Positions 16,994-28,747 of a stretch of DNA of 64,000 nt are shown one piece after another. The stretch comes from Rhizophagus irregularis. Lineage: Eukaryota; Glomeromycota; Glomeromycetes; Glomerales; Glomeraceae. The notes beneath the pieces were generated by a model. It was not told where the DNA came from and did not search any database. It saw only the letters and a program-made list of their open reading frames with translations. The position numbers were made by a program, and so were the translations under genes. The stretch spans positions 682,001 to 746,000 of the forward strand of contig NC_089458.1 of the NCBI RefSeq assembly GCF_026210795.1, read 5' to 3'. Each line of letters begins with the position of its first letter. Within the stretch, counting starts at the first letter, position 1.

Positions 16994-17001
16994 ACCCTTA
17001 A

Positions 17002-17282
17002 CACTGGTAAAAAAATGGTCTATCCTACATATATCCTACACATATCTTACATATATCAGGTACTCAAAATGTAGAAAATCATACACAAATAATACACATA
17101 TCATACACATATCGGGTACTTATATATATATAGTATACCTATTAGGTACCTGATATATGTATGATATATATATTAGTACCTGATATGTGTATGATATGTG
17201 TATTATTTGTGTATGATTTTCTACATTTTGAGTATCCAATATGTGTAAGATATGTGTAGGATAAATCATTTTTTTACCAGTG
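17002..17282. mobile_element. CACTG-ended palindromic MITE, copy 2
   Basis: This 281-bp element has the same ends and core as the one at 2477-2755 (CACTGGTAAAAAAATG and its complement, with the core word GAAAATCATACACAAATAAT). It is flanked by the 3-bp direct repeat TAA. The central asymmetrical part is inverted relative to copy 1. Confidence 0.82.
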
Positions 17283-17439
17283 TAAAAGTTTATAACAATT
17301 TATTAATTTTTAATTTATTAATTAAATAAAACAAATCCATACTATTTAAAATACTAAATATTTTTTTTTTTTGCAAGGTAGTGCAATTCATGAGTTTATT
17401 AGTTATATGAAATTACAGGATTGTCTGCTAAGTGTATAA

Positions 17440-17579
17440 CTAATCTATTAAAACTCTGAACCAGTTCCCCATCCTATAGATTGCTTCTGTGCCCTACCAT
17501 CACCAATATAAAATTCACCTATATCCTCCTATAGTAGCTATCAGATTATATAGGATCATTATTATCATATGGCTTCAGT
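17440..17579 (-). pseudogene. Downstream part of the gene split by the 9.3-kb element
   Basis: On the minus strand this flank reads (with stop codons) PYDNND, then in a clean stretch EFYIGDGRAQKQSIGW and GTGSEF before a stop near 17451. The upstream part of the same gene ends at 26888 with VVKAHTEA. The two parts abut the two copies of the 8-bp duplication GCTTCAGT, so they were contiguous before the insertion. The frame is degraded here. The protein family is unknown to me, but this type of C-terminal end fits Rhizophagus transposon-linked proteins. Confidence 0.55.
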
Positions 17580-20560
17580 AAGACCTGAAAAACTTCTAAT
17601 AGGGGTTACCGCCAAACATGATTCGAGGCTATAATTAATTTTCAAAAAGGTCACCGCCAAATTAATTAGTAAAAGTCACGTGTTGGTTCGCAACAATAAG
17701 AATTTTTTTGTGAAAATCTTTCCTTTCTTGGCCCTATTACTATATTTGAAATAGAAACATGTGAGTAAACAGCAAAACAACCAATCATATTATGGTTCGC
17801 ACTCCTTATACGCTGATCGGCTCATCTCACTAAATAAGTTTATGTGATGTTGACGAGTTGTACCACCCAAGATCGTGAGTTGTACCACTGGTGTACCACC
17901 CAAAAATGTGTGATAAAAAAAACTCCCACCAAAAAAGTACCAAAAACGCGTGAAAAAAAAAGAAATCCAATAACCGCACAGGACATAACCTTTTCGCTAT
18001 TGAAATCGCAAGTTCAGATCAGTTTTAGATCAGTTTCATTTTGAAATTAACAAAATTAAGAAATATTATAAAAAGTAGTCTTATACAAACCTTTATAAAT
18101 AGTTGCACTTAAAACGAAGTTTAGTCACATTTTATAAAAGAATTGCACCATGGTGAGTTAGCAATAATATAATTATTGTTAGATTTTTGCTAAATTTCTT
18201 ATAATTTATATAGGTCGCCAGAGTTTTTTGTCATGATTATCCTAATAATCCTTACATAGATGCCTTATACTCTATCGGAAATGTTCATTCAAGCGTATAG
18301 TAATAGCACTGATACTATCCACAAAATATTAAATACACGCAAAAAAGTAGTAGGAGCATCGTTCAATATCAAATTCCAGATGGATACATCATAGAAACGG
18401 AAGCTGCAAACAAAGCAATACGTTGTGAAACGAACTACATCCCGGTAAATAAAGTGAGTGATGATCTTAAACTAATAAGCGTAATTTGTTATCTGTTATA
18501 TAACAAAATCATTTATTAATGTGAACAAGGTTTTATACACTATAACATGGAAAGAAAGACGGGCAGAATATTCAATATCTAGTGAACGATCAGCAAGTGG
18601 GGCAATAAATGCTTTTTTAAAGGTAAATTTTTAGAAATTAGAAATTATTTAATGTATTAATTATTATGTCTAACTATAATTTCTAAAAATATTAAAAATG
18701 TAACATCTATTTTTATAGAGAATTAGCCGAGAAAATTCTAGACTTTCTGGGATACATGTTTTTGGATTAGATATTGAAATATTACATCAAGCACGAACTG
18801 AAGAATTAACTATAGCAAAAACTACTAATATTGACAAAAGAAAGCGACCCCTTAGTGAAGTATCAGTATCATAACAAAATAAACGATATGCATCATTTGG
18901 GAGAGATGCTCACAAGAAAATCAAACAGCTTATTTTACAACATCGGATGGTTTCAGAGTCCGGGGAGCCAATTCACTTACGTAATATGGAATTGGAATAT
19001 GAAGATCATATTATTAATATAAAATACAATCTATTATTAGATCATATAAAATTAGATGCCTATGTGCGTGCCTGTGATGAAGCTTTATTAGGACGTGATG
19101 GTTACCGAAGGCTTGCTGCTGTAGAAGCACGATTGACACGTGAATATCAAGTTGCACAAAGAAGAATAGAAATTACAAAATTAATCAATGAACAAATACC
19201 AATCGGAACAATTAATCTTAATAAAGAGGTTAATCAACTTGATGACGATGATGAACATCAAAGCAATCCTGATGGAATCATGGTTGATGAACAAGAAATT
19301 GGTAATGGTGTTTATCGATCTATTAGAAATCTTCTTCAAATATTTATTCCTATTTGGAATGAATCAAATCCTCCAATTCTTCAACCAGGAGATACAATTA
19401 ATTTGAAACTTGGTGGAAACGGTAGAAATGTGGGCCGCAAACAGAATCATGTGATGTTAACTATTTGTTTATTAAATGAAAAAGATGAAGTATTAAAACT
19501 AGATCATCAGTATAGGTAGTATTAATTTTGTAATTTTTTAGAACATTTATTAAATAATGAGAAATTAGTATTTGCCTTTTTATAGGTAAAGAAAAATATG
19601 AAACATTAGCTAAAGTTGGAAATCTATTTAAGTATCAGCTCCAAGATCTTCAAGAAAATGGAATATCTGTTGATGGTGTGCATTGGCCAATTGAATTATA
19701 TTTTTCTGGTGACTGGAAATTTACTATGTATAATATAATGGGATTAAATACACCAAATGCAAGATATTTTTGCCTATATTGTGATTGTGAAGCAAGTAAT
19801 CATTGGAATGTAGATTTATGTTGTTCAATTAATAAAAATACAAAGTGTAAGTGTAAACTTATTAAAATAATTTATGTTAAATTAATTATAAACATTATTT
19901 TAAATTAACAGGTCAAAAAAAACCACCTTTATTTCCTGCTATTAAGCAAGAAAATTACATTCCAGACGAATTACATCTATTATTACGTATTTCAGATGTG
20001 TTAATGGAATGTTTTTTTAATGATTTATTCAAAAAAAGGGAATTTGAACGAGAAATTAAAAATCAAATAGAACAAACCATGAAGTCAATTAAAGTTCATT
20101 TTGAATTTTTTAAATCAAGATCAAATAGTGGCAAGTGGGACTGGACCTCATTAATGGGACCTGACAAGAAAAAGGTTTTGCAACATTTCCCTATTGTTAA
20201 TTTTATTTCAGGAAAACGGGGTGTGACGGAAACATGTACTGTATGGATTCCTATGTATGTATGTATGGTGGTCAATGTATGGTATACGGTGTACTTTTCA
20301 TACATACATACTTTTTTATTAAATTATATAATTAGAGAAAACGTATGTATGTATGAAAATAAAATTTCACGTGACTATACATTGAATTCGGAAATTTTTA
20401 TAAAAAAAAATCCCTACTGACTACTTCACGTTTTTTATTTTTTTTTTAAAAAAAATTTTTTTTCATGTATTAGAACTGTAAACGCAATTTATATTTTCTT
20501 TATTATGATTTATAAACGTATTATTATAAATTTAACAAAAAAATCTAAATATATTTTTTT

Positions 20561-23500
20561 TTAACGTTTTTGTTGATTTTCTATTTCTAATGCTTCGGCT
20601 TTAGCTTCCATCATTCGTGCTTCAGCCTCAGCTACTCGTGCTTTAATTTCACGCTTCCTTAATATAATTTCCTTCTCTTTAAGTTCTAACTCGAGATTTT
20701 TTTTATGAATCTCTTTAGAAAATGTTTCTTCTTCATTGTCTGATAAAATATTTTCAGCTCTTTCATGATTTTCCTTTGATCTAATAGGTGTTCTACTATT
20801 AGAAGGTGATAATTTTCTTTTTTTTGATGACTTGGGTAATTTATCATTAAGAGATACTTTATTCTTTTGAATACGAGATGCTATATATTATAAAAAAATT
20901 TTAAAAATTTTTATAAATAAATAAATTAATTGATAAATAATGTTTTTACTTACTTTTGCGTACAATTGAATTTTGTAATCTCTTAACATCACTTTTGTCT
21001 CTATGAGTGTAAGGTACTCCATTTTTGTCATGAACTTCAATCGTTGTATAACACCTTGCATCGTACCTTTTTCCTCTTTAAATTATTTATAATTAATACA
21101 TAATATTCATAATATTAAATGTAATTTGGTAATTAAAAAAACTTAAACTAACTTTAAAATGGCTGATAATAACTTCAATTGCTTTCCTTCTCTGTTAGCC
21201 ATGGAATGGGCCGCTTCAGCATTATTAGTATCTGATCCACTTTTATTCCAAATCTCATGATCAACATTTGAAACGTATTTATTTAAGGAAGATAAAACAT
21301 ATGATTGTCGATAATAATTCAACCATTCTATAAGAAAAAACATTTTTAAAAATTTATATTAATTCTTTTAAACTTCTAAAATAAATAAATAATATACCTT
21401 TTATTCCTTCATCATTTGTATCTTCTATTTGTTGCAGAAGATCATGAACTTGTTCTTTACTAGTTGCATTAGGAATTTGTCGTATTAAATTTTTCGTGCT
21501 TATAGTAAATGTTTTATGAAATAAATTTCTAAAAAAAAAAATAAATTAATTAAATTAAAAGTAAAAGAGATAACTATTCAATAAATTTATAAATACCTTT
21601 CAAAGTGTACAAGGCATGTTTTCAAAATAAATGTCAAGTGTGTTTCCCAACTTTTTTCGTGATCCAAATCATGTAATGCTAATCCTAACTCCTTAGCCTG
21701 TGCAGCGTCCAGATCAGCCAGAATACATCCAATACCACTTCCATGAATATGTCGAAATTGAATAGATTGACCACTTACTTCACGAATTATTTGGAATAAA
21801 GATGAGAATAACCTATGATACCCTTCAGCAGTAAAAACATTAGTAAATATACGACAAAATGACAATACTTAAAAAAAAAAACCATGGTTAGTAACATCAT
21901 TAATGTATATCATTTATAATACATGATGGGATTAATTTAAATAAAAATTTCACTTACTCAGGTGATGTTTGGAATCATACGTGTTAATTTCAAATTCATT
22001 TATCTCTCCTTTTACTCGTTTAAAGCTGACATCAATTTGAAAATAATCAAGTGTAATTAATTTTTTAGCTTGATTATCAAGCATACAAGTAATAATTACT
22101 TGGCCATTATTTGAATAAAGATCTAAAAATAATAGTTATTATTAATGAGTAATTTAAATAAAATGCATAATAAAATTTTAAAAAATTTACCAATTTTGCG
22201 AACATAATTTATTAAATCTGATTTGGGATTTAATATATCATGATAAATTCCTATAACTCCTTGTCCAAAAGGATGCAAGGTCTTGTATGCTTTTCCTACT
22301 AAGTATCGTAATTTGTCTATATTATTGAGAGAGACGTGAACTTCTGCCAATGTTTCTTTATTAAAATAAGCACTGAGTAGATTTCCTATTAGTTTAATAT
22401 ATCAAAACTAAATTAATTATTAATTGATGATGATAAATAATAATCTTATTAATATTTTATACCTGACAATATTGATCTTGAAGTAACATTATCATCTTGT
22501 TGAATAGCTTGGGTAATTAAAGATTCTAAGTTATTCTTAATTCCAGAAGGAATCCTCTCAGGTGCTGGGGGTGGATGATTATGTGTTCCTACACATACAA
22601 GTGCTACAAAAGGACATTTGACAATATCATAAGGAATAAATTTGATAAAGCGCACTTGACAAGGTTTGTCAATTATTTCTCCACGGACAATAGTTCCATT
22701 ATGTGTATGTGGCGTATCTTAAAATAAAAGAGATTTAGTTATGATTTAAAATAAATTTAATAGTATAATTAAATTTAAATAATTACCACATTTTTTACGT
22801 TTACAACTTTTAGAAAGTATCATACTACACTTTACTGTATCTTGTACCTAAATAATTGAATAATTTTTAAATTTTAAAAATAGAAAGATATAAAATAAAT
22901 GGCTATCTGCAATTGCTTATAATTTCCAATTTGACAAAAAAAATAATAATGAGAAATAAATAATACTTACAGATGCAGAACCTGTGAATAGACTTTGAAG
23001 TAATGAAATATCAACTTCATCTTGTTTTATTTTGATATATCGATGCCACTTATCACCTTGTTTGTATTTGTTGCAACCGATAAAATATGATACAATATTT
23101 GTTTGATAATTAGTTATTCTTCCAATATGAGGTCCTCCATTGCATGGGATATTGTCTTTTTTGAAATTACAAGGAGTATCTTTTGCTGCCAAAAATAAAC
23201 TAGTAAAAATTTGGATTAGTAATTAAAATAAGTTTTATACATTTGAAATTAACAATAATTAGTAAACTTACGTATATGTCTTAGCTTCTTTAGTATTATT
23301 ATTATTTTGTTGTGTATAATGTTGAAAAATTTCAGAATCAAAATCAACACTACAGTGTTCTTGATTAACAAGTTCAGGATCAGTGAACTGACAAAACTTT
23401 ATTCCTTGGCATTTTCTTTGATTTTTTTTAACGGGTATTCCTCCAAAAAAGGGCATTCTTGAATATTTGTGGTACCGCCTGAACCATTTGTTGAATATTG

Positions 23501-23908
23501 AATCTACATTGTAATAAAAAGTATTTATAGTTAAAGATCTATAGCTTGTTGTTAAATTAAAGGTAAATAATATATACTTACATCTGAAAACGCGTCTGTA
23601 TGATTTTTCCATCCAGTTACATTGTAAACGGTTGCAACTCCTTCTGAAGATGTATCTGGATATTCTATAGGAACAGTTGTATATATAACTTTGGGAACTC
23701 GCAGTTGAGAAGTAAAGAAAGCTAATGTTTCTTCGCTTTCTAATTCGTTTTCGCTATCACTATTATTCTCTCTCTATTTTTGTTTATTAGCTTTTAATAA
23801 TTTTCTCTTTAATAAAATAATATAATTTGAATAACATTTACTTACCATTTTAATTAAGTCTTTCTCATTATAATCATCTATATCCGAAAGTTCAATAATC
23901 GAAGACAT
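20561..23908 (-). CDS. MULE transposase with WRKY/GCM1-like zinc finger
   Basis: About a dozen exons with GT-AG borders can be followed (for example 23846-23908, 23582-23773 and 23272-23503). The acidic start MSSIIELSDIDDYNEKDLIK leads to CQGIKFCQFTDPEL, a CNFKKDNIPCNGG plus FIGCNKYKQGDKWHRYI zinc-binding-like segment, and CPFVALVCVGTHNHPPPAP, a WRKY/GCM1- or FLYWCH-like Cys/His finger. The DDE-type core follows: YFQIDVSFKRVKGEINEF, ILSFCRIFTNVFTAEGYHRL, then FRHIHGSGIGCILADLDAAQ, with Asp residues in the expected blocks. The C-terminal part has NKSGSDTNNAEAAHSMANRE, a basic stretch and a Lys/Glu-rich coiled coil ending EALEIENQQKR at 20561. The full frame looks intact, so this copy may be autonomous. 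Superfamily assignment rests on motifs plus the 9-bp duplication. Confidence 0.75.
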
Positions 23909-25330
23909 TATGAAGCTTGCGATTAATCGAAGATTGATTATGTTTTAAAAAGTGTATTCTGAAAAAAACGCGTTACAAAATTTTTTAAAAAAATGAATGT
24001 TACGTGTTGTATGTACTAGTTCTATGAATTTAACTTAAAAAGCTAAATCATGGTTTAAAAAGATAAAAAAGGAATAAAAATTAGTTTTATTAATCGTTTT
24101 AACGTGAAAAAAATCCAATTATAGTTAAATAAAAAAATTCTCAATTAAAAAAATATACCATCAAAGTGCCTAATTACTATTTGAGATTCTGAAGATTCAA
24201 TTAACTCCCATCCCTAACAGATTGGACCACCCATTTGCAGGAAATTTTCATTTAAATTGTTAACTTGCGGGAAATTTTTCAATTATCTACATAAATTACT
24301 ATTTGATTAGATAGTTAATAAATCAGCAAACAAATACTTTCACACCCCCAAAAATATTTTTTCCTGAAACAGACATTTTCCGTAAGTAAATTATTTACTA
24401 ACCTTTTTCCCAGATCAAATTAAGTGCGAAAAATGTCAAAAATATTGGAAATTCATTTATTTATATTAGATCGATACAATAAAATCTGATCTCGTAACAC
24501 ATCAATGACGTCTTATCAATTAATGTAACTAAATTTAATATATTACTATATATATACAAGAATATATCGAAAAAAAAATTTTATTTAATACGCCAACAAT
24601 CTAATACAATAAAGGTAAATGAAATATTAATAATATTAATGACATCACTAAAAGAAATGATAACTTCTACATGTGCCTTCGAAATCTCTTATAAAAAGAA
24701 TCTTTTCTCTTCAATTACCATTAAAGAGGAATACATGCAATTCCTTAAAAATCCATAATGTTGCTGGAAGAAAAAACAACTTCTTACACTAAAAGTTACC
24801 CGAAAATTCTTTAAAACATTTGTTTCAAATTCCCAACAAATGACTTAAAATCGGAAAAACAGGAAAAAAGGCATTAATGTTTTTTCATAATGCCGTTAAC
24901 CACTTTATACCAACCCAAAGATGCTTACCTTAATAGTTCCGTTCCAAAGGAAACTCTGAACCCTAAAAAAATAAGGTGCTAGTCTTTTCAAAATGTCATT
25001 AACATCGTGTCATTACAACTACACATTTATTAAGAAGAAATAAAAAAAACGGGTTAATATCGTTTTTAAAAGTAAATTTAAATAAAACTCTTACCACTTA
25101 CCAGAAATCTGTTAAAAAAATAAAAAAATAAACATAGTTTCGTTTCAAAAAAATTTGAGAAAAAAAAGAGCCAAGTCACAATCATGTGAAAAAAATGTTG
25201 TTTATACAATCATACGGTCATACTTTATTTTCTGGTTCGAGATAAATATACATGTACGAAATCATTACCATACATAGCATACATGTAACAGTTTGTAACA
25301 CCATACATACATACATCGGTTTCCATACAA
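23909..25330. other. Noncoding part of the MULE
   Basis: Between the transposase start and the right end lies about 1.4 kb of AT-rich DNA without a gene. Around 24235-24275 there is a diverged direct repeat of GCAGGAAATTTTCA/GCGGGAAATTTTTCA. The last 100 bp carry CATACATA-rich words that mirror the left end. The promoter of the transposase gene should lie in this stretch. Confidence 0.55.
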
Positions 25331-25934
25331 TACTTGTTTTTTATATAATCAGGAAAACGTGGTGAAGAAATTCAAAAACTATGGCGTGATTTTTATGATT
25401 TATACTTAGTTTTGAGAAGTCCTAATCTAACATATTCAGAAATTGATAATTTCGAAAATAAAGCAAAGCAATGGATTAAATTGTTTTGTCGGCCAAGTCA
25501 GGGGCAAATGAACTCAGCATCACAAATACCGGGTTTATATAGAAAAGAGGATGTTACCCCTTATATGCATGTTTTTTCCCAGCACATTCCAGAATTTTTG
25601 CGAAATCTAAAGGAAAAAAATATGGGATTGCGGGTTTTTTCTACTTCAAGCATTGAAAAAAAAAACCATAATCAGGTATATCACTTTTATTTTTTTTTTT
25701 TAAATCATTTTGTTTGACTAATTACGTTATCTCTATTTTTATCTATAAATTTTAGGTTAGACTATTTTTTTGTGGAACAACTATGGGTGGTGGAACCAGA
25801 GGAAACCTGTAGTATATGATATTATGGAGTTTGAAAATCGTCAGTTATATTATTTAATAAATAATACGCCGCAAGAAATTCTGATGCGACATATTGATGC
25901 AGGGGACAAAGAAAACAAAGACTAAAAGTGGAAT

Positions 25935-26777
25935 TTACTTACTCTGATTCATATCTTGAAGTGGCCGAGGTAAAATGTAACGGAATTTCTTCTTAACAGG
26001 CTGTTTTAAATTGTTGGATAAAGATGATGTATCTTCTTGAAATATTGAAAATTGTGAATTTGGTGTAGGTGTTTGGTTTATGTTACTATAATAAAAAAAT
26101 TATGAATAAATGTAAATTTTAAAAAAAAAATAATAATAAACTCATTACTTTTCTTGAAATTCTCCAGAGTCTGTAATAAAATTACATGTCATTCTTCCTA
26201 ATGTGAACTTTCTATTATTCTCTAATAATACCGTCTGGCTCCATATAAATTTAACTTGATACGTATTTTCATAATCTTCAAGTAAGACATAACCTTTAGT
26301 ATTAGTTAGAGGATTTTGTCGGAAACTCCACTGATCATAGTGAAGTATTTGCTTAAGTCTGTTTTCTCCTGTTAACCCCCAAAATAACATTGATATTTAT
26401 GTTTAGCAGGACTGTATTTGAACTTTTCTTCATCTTTAAATAGATATACAAATATGTTTTCTGGAAATGTTTCGATTGAAAAGCGTTTTTTCCCAATGGC
26501 ATGTCGAGAAAAACCTAGTTTTTTTTTTAATAAGAATTATAAAGGAGTTTATGTATTGAGACATTTGTTCCGAAGTAGGACGAGGAAGAGAATAGAAATG
26601 GGGTATTGTTTTATTGTGCGAATGTTTATTTCTTTCATGAACGAATAATTTTTGATAAGTTGTAAAAGCTTTAAAACAAAGCTTACAGCAAATAGACAAC
26701 GGGTTTTCCATCAGGACGCGAAAAACTACTGTACAACGATTACTGAATAAATATCGTATAGTACATGCAATAATCAC
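25935..26777 (-). pseudogene. C2H2 zinc-finger gene of the 9.3-kb element, frame-shifted
   Basis: The minus strand encodes CKLCFKAFTTYQKLFVHE and RNKH, a C-x2-C-x12-H-x4-H finger, then IPHFYSLPRPTSEQMSQYIN. After a shift in the poly-A near 26520 comes FSRHAIGKKRFSIETFPENI and KFKYSPAKHKYQCYFGG. After a second shift near 26375 comes LTGENRLKQILHYDQWSFRQ and NNRKFTLGRMTCNFITDSGE. A short intron (about 26093-26147) leads to PNSQFSIFQEDTSSLSNNL and a basic end stopping at 25935-25937. The gene is convergent with the plus-strand gene, stop codons 9 bp apart. The role is unknown; a finger protein encoded by a transposon may bind DNA for transposition. Confidence 0.65.
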
Positions 26778-26888
26778 ATTGTTGATCTGTGTGACAAAAT
26801 TGAGGAGGAGTCAAATTGGCCCATATGTATTTTTTTTTGATTTTTTGGCGGTAACCTTTATATATAGTTTTCCAGGTCCTGCTTCAGT

Positions 26889-27665
26889 ATGTGCTTTCAC
26901 TACCCTCTAAACAAAAAGAAGAATTATATTTGTATTTGTACATTTTGATATTATTATATACCTTCCAAATTACCCTATTTCCTTCTCTGATAAATTGATC
27001 TATATATTGTCTAGTTTTTCCAAGAGCAATTGACCATTGTTCACTATGTTTAAGAATTTTCCTTCCCTTTAAGTCATATGTAGCACCATCTATTTGTTGA
27101 GTTGGGGTTCGTTCATATGTAATATGTTGATGTGCTGGTATTTTCTTCCTTAAGTCTTGCTTCTTAATTCCTTTTATGCGTTCCCATTCTGTTATTAAGT
27201 TGCATCGTGGTTGCCAAATAATTCTATAAAATTCATTAACAAATATTTCTAAAAGGAGGGTAGTAATTGTTAGTGTAGCTTTTTCTGACTTAACAATAAG
27301 CTTGATTTCTCTATATTTTTCTTTTAGAAAGAAATTCTTTATCATTAATTGTGCATGGGGAATAGGTAACTCTTGATTTGAATCTGTTGTATGAACAAAA
27401 AATTTTCTATTCCACAAAAGTAATTGTTGTGTGTCCTCTTGAAAATACTAAATATTTTTGAGTTATAATGATAAAATAAAAAGAATATATAAATGAAAAA
27501 AAATGAAATAAAAAAAATGAAGGGATTAAAAATAGAATAAAATGGAGTAAAAGAGAAGTGAAAAAAATAAAAAAAAATAAAAAAATAAAAAGAAGTAAAG
27601 AAAAAATAAAAAAATAAAAGAAATAAAGAGTAGTTAACTAGTTGTACAATTATTTTAAAAGCCAT
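26889..27665 (-). pseudogene. Upstream part of the gene split by the 9.3-kb element
   Basis: A possible first exon starts MAFKIIVQLVN (27665). An AT-rich intron precedes exon 2 (about 26962-27448): YFQEDTQQLLLWNRKFFVHT, HAQLMIKNFFLKEKYREIKL, LLLEIFVNEFYRIIWQPRCN and GKTRQYIDQFIREGNRVIWK. A further intron leads to RVVKAHTEA, where the frame runs into the inserted element. The continuation lies at about 17440-17579. Part 2 alone looks intact, which suggests that the insertion broke a gene that was then still open. The family is unrecognised, possibly another transposon-linked protein. Confidence 0.6.
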
Positions 27666-27869
27666 TATATCTAAATTGAATAAAACTTAAAGTGATTAAC
27701 TTATGTGATTTAACTTATTAATAAATTTTATATAATTATATAATTTTATTCAAATTTTTTTTTAAAAAATATAAATTATAAATACAATAAAAAATGAAAT
27801 ACATTAGTTGTCAAAAATATAAAAAAATTTATTATTATGCTCTAGATTTATATAAAGTGAAATGAATAA

Positions 27870-28050
27870 GGGAGCTTACAGATATTATGTAATTATTAAA
27901 GGGGGGAGGGAAATAACCAAAATCTTACATTACACTTAATAAAATATATAATTTATAAATATTATAATTTGATTGGTTATTAAATCTGACAAGGAGGAGG
28001 GGAAGTAAGTTTATATTAAACTGAATATTACGTAATATATGTAACTCCCC
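27870..28050 (+). mobile_element. Tourist-like MITE, copy 1
   Basis: The 181-bp element has inverted ends GGGAGCTTACAGATATTA and, inward from the right, GGGGAGTTACATATATTACG. TAA flanks it on both sides (27867-27869 and 28051-28053). Two further copies follow at 28208-28378 and 29992-30175, in the same orientation. Three-base TWA duplications are typical of PIF/Harbinger-derived Tourist MITEs. Shared core: TAATTTGATTGGTTATTAAA. Confidence 0.85.
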
Positions 28051-28207
28051 TAATAATACAATTAATTTTTTTTTTTAAAAAAAAAATATTGATGTAAAAT
28101 ATAAATTTTAGGAAGTAATATAACCTAAATTATTTAACCTAAAAAGCAAGTTAGTAAAACTTATCTAGGTTTATAATAATATTTCAAAAATTAGTTAAAT
28201 CACCTTA

Positions 28208-28378
28208 GAGAACTTACATATATTACGTAATTATTAAAGGGGAAGGAAGTAACTAAAATCTTACATTACACTTAATAAAATTATATGATTTATAAATATT
28301 ATAATTTGATTGGTTATTAAATCTGACAAGGAGTAAGTTTATATTAAACTAAATATTATGTAATATATGTAACTCCTC
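28208..28378 (+). mobile_element. Tourist-like MITE, copy 2
   Basis: Same family as copy 1, with start GAGAACTTACATATATTACG and the same core. It is flanked by TTA on both sides (28205-28207 and 28379-28381). It is slightly shorter because it lost bases in the GGGG-rich part and in the GGAGGAGGGGAAG segment. Confidence 0.85.
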
Positions 28379-28479
28379 TTAAATAAAAAATTATTAAATT
28401 ATTCTAAATGAAAATTAGTTATAATCTTTTAATATAAATACATTTGAAAATTTATTTATAAATAAAATATAGGGTTTAA

Positions 28480-28747
28480 AATTTAAACGCATCTGCATTT
28501 AAACGCACCCTCATGATATAAGTCAAAAATAAAGTTTTAAACTCCTTTTGTCATAGTAAGTAAAGTTGTAGAGGAGGCAAAAATATGCATATAACATAAG
28601 TTTATTTATAGGTGTATAAGGTATAAATTGCATTTATTTAAAAAAATCAGAAATTCGCCAGTATCACATGATAAAATGATCAACATTTTTATTATATAAA
28701 AATTTCCAAAAAAGGGGGTGCATTCAAAATGCAGGTGCGTTCAAATT
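28480..28747. mobile_element. TTAA-flanked MITE of 268 bp
   Basis: The left end reads AATTTAAACGCATCTGCATT and then TAAACGCACCC. The right end, inward, reads AATTTGAACGCACCTGCATT and then TTGAATGCACCC. TTAA lies immediately outside both ends, as for piggyBac-like insertions, although in AT-rich DNA this could be chance. No coding capacity. Confidence 0.7.

What the first reader, a model, noticed from the sequence alone, without database searches (positions are those of the whole stretch)
17440..27665. Three-level nest: gene split by a transposon split by a MULE
Exact, non-AT-rich target duplications mark both insertions (GCTTCAGT at 17572/26881, AGGAAAACG at 20210/25351). Coding frames match across each break: GKR to GKRGEE for the inner insertion, and VVKAHTEA to the 17.4-17.6 kb fragment for the outer. 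This gives a clear relative order: interrupted gene, then the two-gene element, then the MULE.
Basis: seen in the sequence. Interest (0 to 1): 0.82.

Follow-up and report, generated by a model that had tools for sequence, protein, structure and literature searches.

The report
Four mobile elements stacked like dolls
One spot in a repeat-rich, probably fungal, genome holds four different jumping DNA elements that landed one inside another, and copies elsewhere in the same genome show the order; nesting itself is ordinary, but one layer is an unclassified element that seems to duplicate only a single base where it lands.

Summary
The duplications are real, and the nest is deeper than described: four mobile elements, one inside another, in an older AT-rich repeat. 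(1) The "interrupted gene" is the 3' tail of a 5'-truncated LINE with its own 15-bp duplication. (2) GCTTCAGT was made by a 280-bp inverted-repeat element (MITE), not by the two-gene transposon; 8 of 8 fetched LINE copies are uninterrupted there. (3) The two-gene transposon lies inside the MITE; 9 of 9 fetched MITE copies lack it. (4) Its transposase gene holds a 5,132-bp element with 9-bp duplications, as have 5 of 5 other full copies; 10 of 12 fetched host copies are uninterrupted at this site, two do not reach it. The frame match holds at the inner break, not at the outer one. The nest is ordinary in kind. The middle transposon is less so: no Pfam match and an apparent one-base target duplication (9 of 10 end pairs; empty-site relatives for four insertions). 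A paper says PHIS transposons make none or 1-4 bp, so one base is not unheard of.

The parts
17283..17347 (.). left part of the old AT-rich repeat that was there first (continues at 27457-27628)
   Evidence: six fetched relatives (L062-L067, chosen from 11 listed places that span the junction) lack the LINE; search identities 69-78%
17348..17362 (.). LINE target-site duplication, left copy AAAATACTAAATATT
   Evidence: identical to 27442-27456; abuts the poly-T that marks the LINE 3' end
17363..17579 (-). 3' end of a 5'-truncated LINE, with its poly-A tail (poly-T on the plus strand) and 3' untranslated part
   Evidence: 99.1, 96.8 and 96.4% to L058, L059, L060; homology starts at 17361-17363 in all three
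17572..17579 (.). MITE target-site duplication, left copy GCTTCAGT
17580..17806 (.). left part of the 280-bp MITE, terminal inverted repeat at 17580-17616
   Evidence: 17582-17806 is 100% identical at three other genome places; nine uninterrupted copies aligned
17807..20218 (+). left part of the two-gene middle transposon (its first bases are altered relative to CATATGGGCTGATCG in other copies)
   Evidence: 97.5-99.0% to L021-L023, homology starting at 17812
18150..25925 (+). transposase-like gene of the middle element, several exons, broken by the inner element and, in this copy, also by a stop codon, a frame disruption and a change at the first candidate catalytic Asp
   Evidence: ORFs compared with copy L021; candidate D/D/E positions in other copies
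20210..20218 (.). target-site duplication of the inner element, left copy AGGAAAACG
20219..25350 (-). inner 5,132-bp element (Mutator-like by duplications and ends) with a multi-exon gene on the minus strand, about 20561-23908
   Evidence: four uninterrupted full copies (L033-L036) at 99.6-99.7%, and L038 in two pieces at 99.1-99.2%, with the same ends and their own 9-bp duplications
25351..25359 (.). target-site duplication of the inner element, right copy AGGAAAACG
25360..26827 (+). right part of the middle element, ending GCCCATATG
   Evidence: 98.5-99.3% to L021-L023
25935..26710 (-). second gene of the middle element, C2H2-finger-like protein on the minus strand
   Evidence: zf-C2H2_4 E=0.007-0.008, below the curated cut-off
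26828..26880 (.). right part of the MITE, terminal inverted repeat at 26844-26880
26881..26888 (.). MITE target-site duplication, right copy GCTTCAGT; also holds the TGA stop of the LINE frame
26881..27441 (-). C-terminal coding part of the LINE, cut on its 5' side at 27441
   Evidence: 98.6, 91.7 and 91.8% to L058-L060, ending at 27441-27442 in all three; the C2 copy (L061 and L058, overlapping) carries RVT_1 and RNase_H upstream
27442..27456 (.). LINE target-site duplication, right copy AAAATACTAAATATT
27457..27628 (.). right part of the old AT-rich repeat

Best explanation
Four successive transposition events built a stack at one place. An old AT-rich repeat received a 5'-truncated LINE copy by target-primed reverse transcription (15-bp duplication, poly-A tail). 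A 280-bp MITE, presumably moved in trans by another element's transposase, then inserted at the LINE's stop codon (8-bp duplication). A 3.9-kb two-gene inverted-repeat transposon then inserted into the MITE, duplicating apparently one base. Last, a 5.1-kb Mutator-like element inserted into that transposon's transposase gene (9-bp duplication). The order and junctions are shown by copies lacking each insertion in the same genome; the transposition mechanisms are inferred from anatomy and family knowledge.
For: Inner: 10 of 12 fetched relatives of the middle element are contiguous across the site; the other two (L024, L026) do not reach it. Five other full copies of the inner element have the same ends, each with its own 9-bp duplication. 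Middle in MITE: three copies at 97.5-99.3% begin and end at CATATGGGC/GCCCATATG with unrelated flanks; 9 of 9 fetched MITE copies are uninterrupted at that point. MITE in LINE: 8 of 8 fetched LINE copies are uninterrupted, the octamer present once (7 exact, L056 with one mismatch); of nine other MITE copies 7 have exact 8-bp duplications, L041 one mismatch, L044 none. LINE: 15-bp duplication, poly-T, 5' truncation; RVT_1 E=7e-7 and RNase_H E=2.1e-15 in the C2 copy. LINE in repeat: six fetched relatives contiguous across the site. Substitutions private to the window copy: LINE 3 of 701, MITE 1 of 265, middle 18 of 3,821, inner 8 of 5,087 comparable columns, lowest in the innermost.
Against: The left end of the middle element is altered in the window, so that junction is certain only to a few bases. 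Relatives of the base repeat are only 69-78% alike, AT-rich, were picked because they span the junction, and carry about 20 bases after the site that the window lacks, so the LINE's empty site is the weakest of the four. Counts of private changes are small and the sets of compared copies differ. One MITE copy (L044) has no duplication. All evidence comes from one assembly; no reads or other strains were available.
Confidence: 0.95

Rival explanations
1. Three levels, as first read: a cellular gene split by the two-gene transposon (which made GCTTCAGT), split by a MULE.
For: Both duplications are exact, and the inner break does split a coding frame.
Against: Close copies of the two-gene element start at 17812, not 17580, and lack the 17580-17806 and 26828-26880 stretches, which form a separate 280-bp repeat. 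The 'gene' has about 40 listed genome places, a poly-A end and RT/RNase H upstream, and its frame ends inside the duplication.
Confidence: 0.02
2. MITE plus two-gene element is one composite transposon that moved as a unit and made GCTTCAGT.
For: In the window they lie together between one pair of 8-bp duplications.
Against: 3 of 3 near-identical middle copies with both ends lack MITE ends, and 9 of 9 fetched MITE copies lack the middle element. Not every listed MITE place was fetched (nine of 42 rows).
Confidence: 0.01
3. Assembly artefact: repeats wrongly joined.
For: All parts are repeats and no reads could be checked.
Against: Three exact duplications sit at junctions defined by other copies, and each layer has private changes.
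Confidence: 0.02
4. For the middle element: it makes no duplication (as Spy elements), and the shared single base is coincidence or part of its end.
For: A single base matches by chance about 3 times in 10; the pair of ends on C27 does not share one base but three.
Against: 9 of 10 end pairs share exactly one base (about 2 in 10,000 by chance), the base differs between copies (A, T or G), and relatives of the empty site have the base once: 9 of 9 MITE copies, 13 of 13 units of the array around L028, L078 for L029 and three relatives for L021.
Confidence: 0.1

Closest known systems
Nested transposable elements in repeat-rich genomes (fungal examples seen only in a search listing: PMC4522978, PMC5915480, PMC13041039)
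   Same: Elements inserted into elements, order read from duplications and uninterrupted copies
   Different: Four resolved insertions of four element types at one site; nothing new in kind
Mutator-like elements (MULEs), named among recent expansions in Rhizophagus irregularis by PMC8647823 (passages read)
   Same: 9-bp duplications in 6 of 6 full copies including the window, inverted ends, shorter inverted-repeat relatives sharing the ends
   Different: No PF10551 match in the inner protein, though the same genome lists 150 matches elsewhere
PHIS superfamily, including Spy (PMC4482050 and PMC10045372, passages read)
   Same: Inverted ends with very short duplications: Spy none, PHIS as a whole 'no TSDs or 1 bp to 4 bp'
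   Different: Flanks of the middle element do not show the AAATTT target of Spy; no Pfam transposase match
Plavaka in CMCT (PMC12730594, passages read)
   Same: Short duplications (2 or 3 bp) and, in PlavakaB, ends beginning CAT
   Different: PlavakaB ends are CATCA..TGATG, here CATATG..CATATG; no Pfam match
Non-LTR retrotransposons (LINEs) with RNase H
   Same: 5' truncation, poly-A, 15-bp duplication, RT and RNase H in a longer copy
   Different: Nothing notable

Membership tests
LINE (non-LTR retrotransposon), outermost insertion | reverse transcriptase in the same family | tested here: met
   RVT_1 E=7e-7, exactly at its cut-off (29.6 bits), in L061; RNase_H E=2.1e-15 in L058; the two loci overlap on C2, same strand
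LINE (non-LTR retrotransposon), outermost insertion | poly-A 3' end, 5' truncation, target duplication | tested here: met
   poly-T at 17363-17372, truncation at 27441, 15-bp duplication
MITE with 8-bp duplications (hAT-, P- or KDZ-type) | short, non-coding, inverted ends, constant-length duplications | tested here: met
   278-283 bp in nine other copies; 7 of 9 exact 8-bp duplications, 1 with a mismatch, 1 none
MITE with 8-bp duplications (hAT-, P- or KDZ-type) | the transposase superfamily that moves it | not tested
   no autonomous partner was sought
Mutator-like element, innermost | target duplications of about 9 bp | tested here: met
   window plus L033, L034, L035, L036, L038: 6 of 6
Mutator-like element, innermost | MULE transposase domain PF10551 | tested here: not met
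   no match at E<=1 in the joined exon pieces; none of 150 listed genome matches lies in the six full copies, but only 150 of 407 candidates were scored
KDZ or Plavaka, middle element | Pfam transposase match | tested here: not met
   no Pfam family at E<=1 for the joined exons of copy L021; that Pfam holds KDZ and Plavaka models is recalled
KDZ or Plavaka, middle element | 8-bp (Zisupton) or 2-3-bp (Plavaka) duplications | tested here: not met
   one base shared in 9 of 10 end pairs; the C27 pair shares three
Spy/PHIS, middle element | Spy: no duplication and AAATTT target | tested here: not met
   apparent one-base duplication, flanks not AAA|TTT
Spy/PHIS, middle element | PHIS transposase | tested here: inconclusive
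   no Pfam match; no tree or fold comparison made
DDE/D cut-and-paste transposon in general, middle element | conserved D, D, E in an RNase H-like fold | tested here: inconclusive
   D1 and D2 candidates in 12 of 12 copies (L023 shows both D and R at D1), E candidate in 8 of 8 that cover it; the residues were picked by eye and the fold was not predicted

The most novel reading that the evidence does not exclude
[quoted passage not shown] The nest itself supplies one of its empty sites (the MITE).
Probability: 0.25. Interest if true: 0.55.

Novelty: new member of a known kind. Interest (0 to 1): 0.38.

Why it matters
It gives a fully ordered insertion history at one locus. The inner element's full copies are 99.45-99.98% alike, so it spread very recently. 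The part of wider interest is the middle element: a transposon without a recognised transposase family that apparently duplicates a single base would be an unusual case for how transposases cut their target.

Tried and rejected
Tried without result: Pfam on ten single pieces (one matched, weakly) and on joined exons of the middle and inner proteins; a viral-contig scan for relatives of the middle transposase (one pattern match, none confirmed); PF10551 genome search (the inner copies are not among the 150 listed).

Paper searches. Nested elements: 'Rhizophagus irregularis, nested, KDZ' at two of three terms (no paper on nested elements among the 15 of 188 listed) and 'arbuscular mycorrhizal, nested transposable elements' (0 papers). 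One-base duplications: searches found 0 papers for the phrases tried; yet a passage of PMC10045372 says that PHIS elements make no or 1-4 bp duplications, so the idea is in print.

Considered and rejected: CATATG as a 6-bp target duplication of the middle element (the uninterrupted MITE has no CATATG at the site); an intron in the LINE frame before VVKAHTEA (the frame is open through it); the outer sequence as a cellular gene.

The organism is named by no call. The size (146.7 Mb in 32 contigs) and repeats suggest Rhizophagus irregularis or a close relative; this is recall, not a test.

Full report
What was checked. Because words of 8-9 bases recur by chance, I looked for independent evidence of the junctions by finding copies of every part in the same genome (146.7 Mb, 32 contigs, unnamed).

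Inner level. The stretch 18900-19520 has 30 listed matches in the genome, the window included. I fetched 12 other places. Ten run straight across the site: L021-L023 at 97.5-99.3% identity, L025 and L027-L032 in pieces at about 70-88%. The other two (L024, L026) end before it. The inserted 20219-25350 recurs elsewhere: of eight fetched places five carry the full element with exactly these ends (L033-L036 at 99.6-99.7%, L038 in two pieces at 99.1-99.2% around an extra insert of about 1.16 kb); L037, L039 and L040 are partial or diverged. All five full copies have their own 9-bp duplication: GTGTAACAG, CTTTTTTTG, GTAAGAAAG, ATTTTTTAT, AACCCTTGA.

Copies L021-L024 of the two-gene element begin at CATATGGGCTGATCG, not at the equivalent of 17580, and L021-L023 end at GCCCATATG, not at the equivalent of 26880; their flanks are unrelated. 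Diverged relatives keep these ends. The remaining stretches, 17580-17806 and 26828-26880, are the two halves of a 280-bp inverted-repeat element: 17582-17806 is found at 100% in three other places, and at 98-99% in more. I fetched nine of the 42 listed matches; all nine are uninterrupted where the middle element sits. Seven have exact 8-bp duplications, L041 has one mismatch and L044 none. So GCTTCAGT is the MITE's duplication.

The middle element's own target duplication. In the window the base left of the element and the base right of it are both T, and the nine uninterrupted MITE copies have one T there (CACTCC-T-ATTTTTTTTT); the left end of the window copy is altered, so this alone is weak. 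I therefore searched the genome for both ends (28 left and 33 right matches) and read the flanks of the ten pairs that I could form on one strand of a contig: five known copies (L021, L022, L023, L028, L029) and five new pairs. Nine of ten share exactly one base (A five times, T twice, G twice); the C27 pair shares three bases instead. Three of the new pairs (C8, C29, C27) lie 13-16 kb apart, so their ends may not belong together; of the seven closer pairs all share one base. By chance nine or more of ten would be expected about twice in 10,000 (assuming 0.31 per pair). Relatives of the empty site agree: L028 lies in a 120-bp tandem array in which 13 of 13 units found by my pattern have A5 where L028 has A plus A5, and two units match the site with one A removed letter for letter over the 26 bases shown; for L029 the relative L078 (85% in the search) has a single G; for L021 three relatives (L079-L081) have AAA where L021 has AAAA across the two flanks. 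The A runs leave room for slippage; the G of L029 and the T of the MITE do not.

The interrupted 'gene'. The flanks 17380-17571 and 26889-27445 have 40 and 41 listed matches, the window included (only 40 candidates were scored in each). Eight fetched copies read straight through, seven with GCTTCAGT once and one (L056) with one mismatch. Homology to L058-L060 starts at a poly-T at 17361-17363 and stops at 27441-27442, while those copies go on. The 15 bases just left of the poly-T (17348-17362) recur at 27442-27456. In the C2 copy the same strand carries RNase_H (E=2.1e-15, L058) and RVT_1 (E=7e-7, exactly at its cut-off, L061) upstream; an endonuclease match is below cut-off (E=0.0057). This is a 5'-truncated LINE. 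Its open frame ends at a TGA within the MITE's duplication, so the MITE hit the stop codon.

Base level. A query of the joined LINE flanks found 11 places, besides the window's own, whose match spans the junction. Six were fetched (L062-L067) and are contiguous across it, though only 69-78% alike in the search, AT-rich, and with about 20 bases after the site that the window lacks. The base is an older, unclassified repeat, and this empty site is the weakest of the four.

Timing. Substitutions private to the window copy are 3 of 701 (LINE), 1 of 265 (MITE), 18 of 3,821 (middle) and 8 of 5,087 (inner) comparable columns. The innermost is lowest, as expected, but the two outer counts are too small to rank. 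The order rests on the nesting, not on these counts.

What the parts are. Inner: 9-bp duplications and inverted ends as in Mutator-like elements; the protein has D..F, C..H..R and E motifs that I recognise by eye from memory, but no PF10551 match, and none of the 150 listed PF10551 matches falls in its copies (407 candidates, 150 scored). It works like a Mutator-like element; membership by transposase is not shown. Middle: two genes; no Pfam match for the main protein, a weak C2H2 match for the second. Candidate D/D/E residues and a CxxC recur in the copies (D1 and D2 in 12 of 12, L023 ambiguous at D1; CxxC in 10 of 12; E in 8 of 8 that cover it). The window copy is disabled in several ways besides the insertion: a stop codon, a frame disruption and a change at D1.

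Literature. [quoted passage not shown] passages of PMC11075540 report a newly seen superfamily (Transib) and new families including Plavaka and MULE. I could not compare sequences with their libraries, so the middle element may already be among their families. Spy elements lack duplications but prefer AAATTT (PMC4482050, passages); PHIS as a whole is said to make none or 1-4 bp (PMC10045372, passages); PlavakaB makes 2-3 bp with ends CATCA..TGATG (PMC12730594, passages). Nested elements in fungi appear in the search listing (not read). That the genome is Rhizophagus is recall.

Verdict. The nest is real, deeper than reported, and ordinary in kind. The middle element, with its apparent one-base duplication and unrecognised transposase, is the part that deserves further work.

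Noticed in passing
window 16998-17286: A near-perfect palindrome (119-base arms, 89% complementary, no spacer) just left of the stack; its last 46-49 bases recur at 98-100% at many genome places, so it is probably a foldback element next to or inside the base repeat.
   Followed up: partly
window 27869-28395: Two copies of a segment about 337 bases apart (84-96% alike); parts of 27861-28110 and 28428-28700 are repeated in the genome.
   Followed up: no
L038 2742-3900: A copy of the inner element that itself carries an insert of about 1.16 kb: a further nest.
   Followed up: no
G000:C21:2033885-2035892: Another MITE copy seems to hold a 1.77-kb insert, with about 10 query bases repeated on both sides.
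   Followed up: no
G000:C25:1811739-1811928 and similar places: Short inverted-repeat elements share about 60-75 bases of the inner element's end on both strands: probable non-autonomous relatives.
   Followed up: no
L025, L027, L029; G000:C8:893635-907221: Other copies of the middle element have gaps in their match, or ends 13.6 kb apart, that suggest inserts of their own.
   Followed up: no
G000:C2:2993233-2995253: Both ends of the middle element only 2.0 kb apart, probably a shortened, non-autonomous copy.
   Followed up: no
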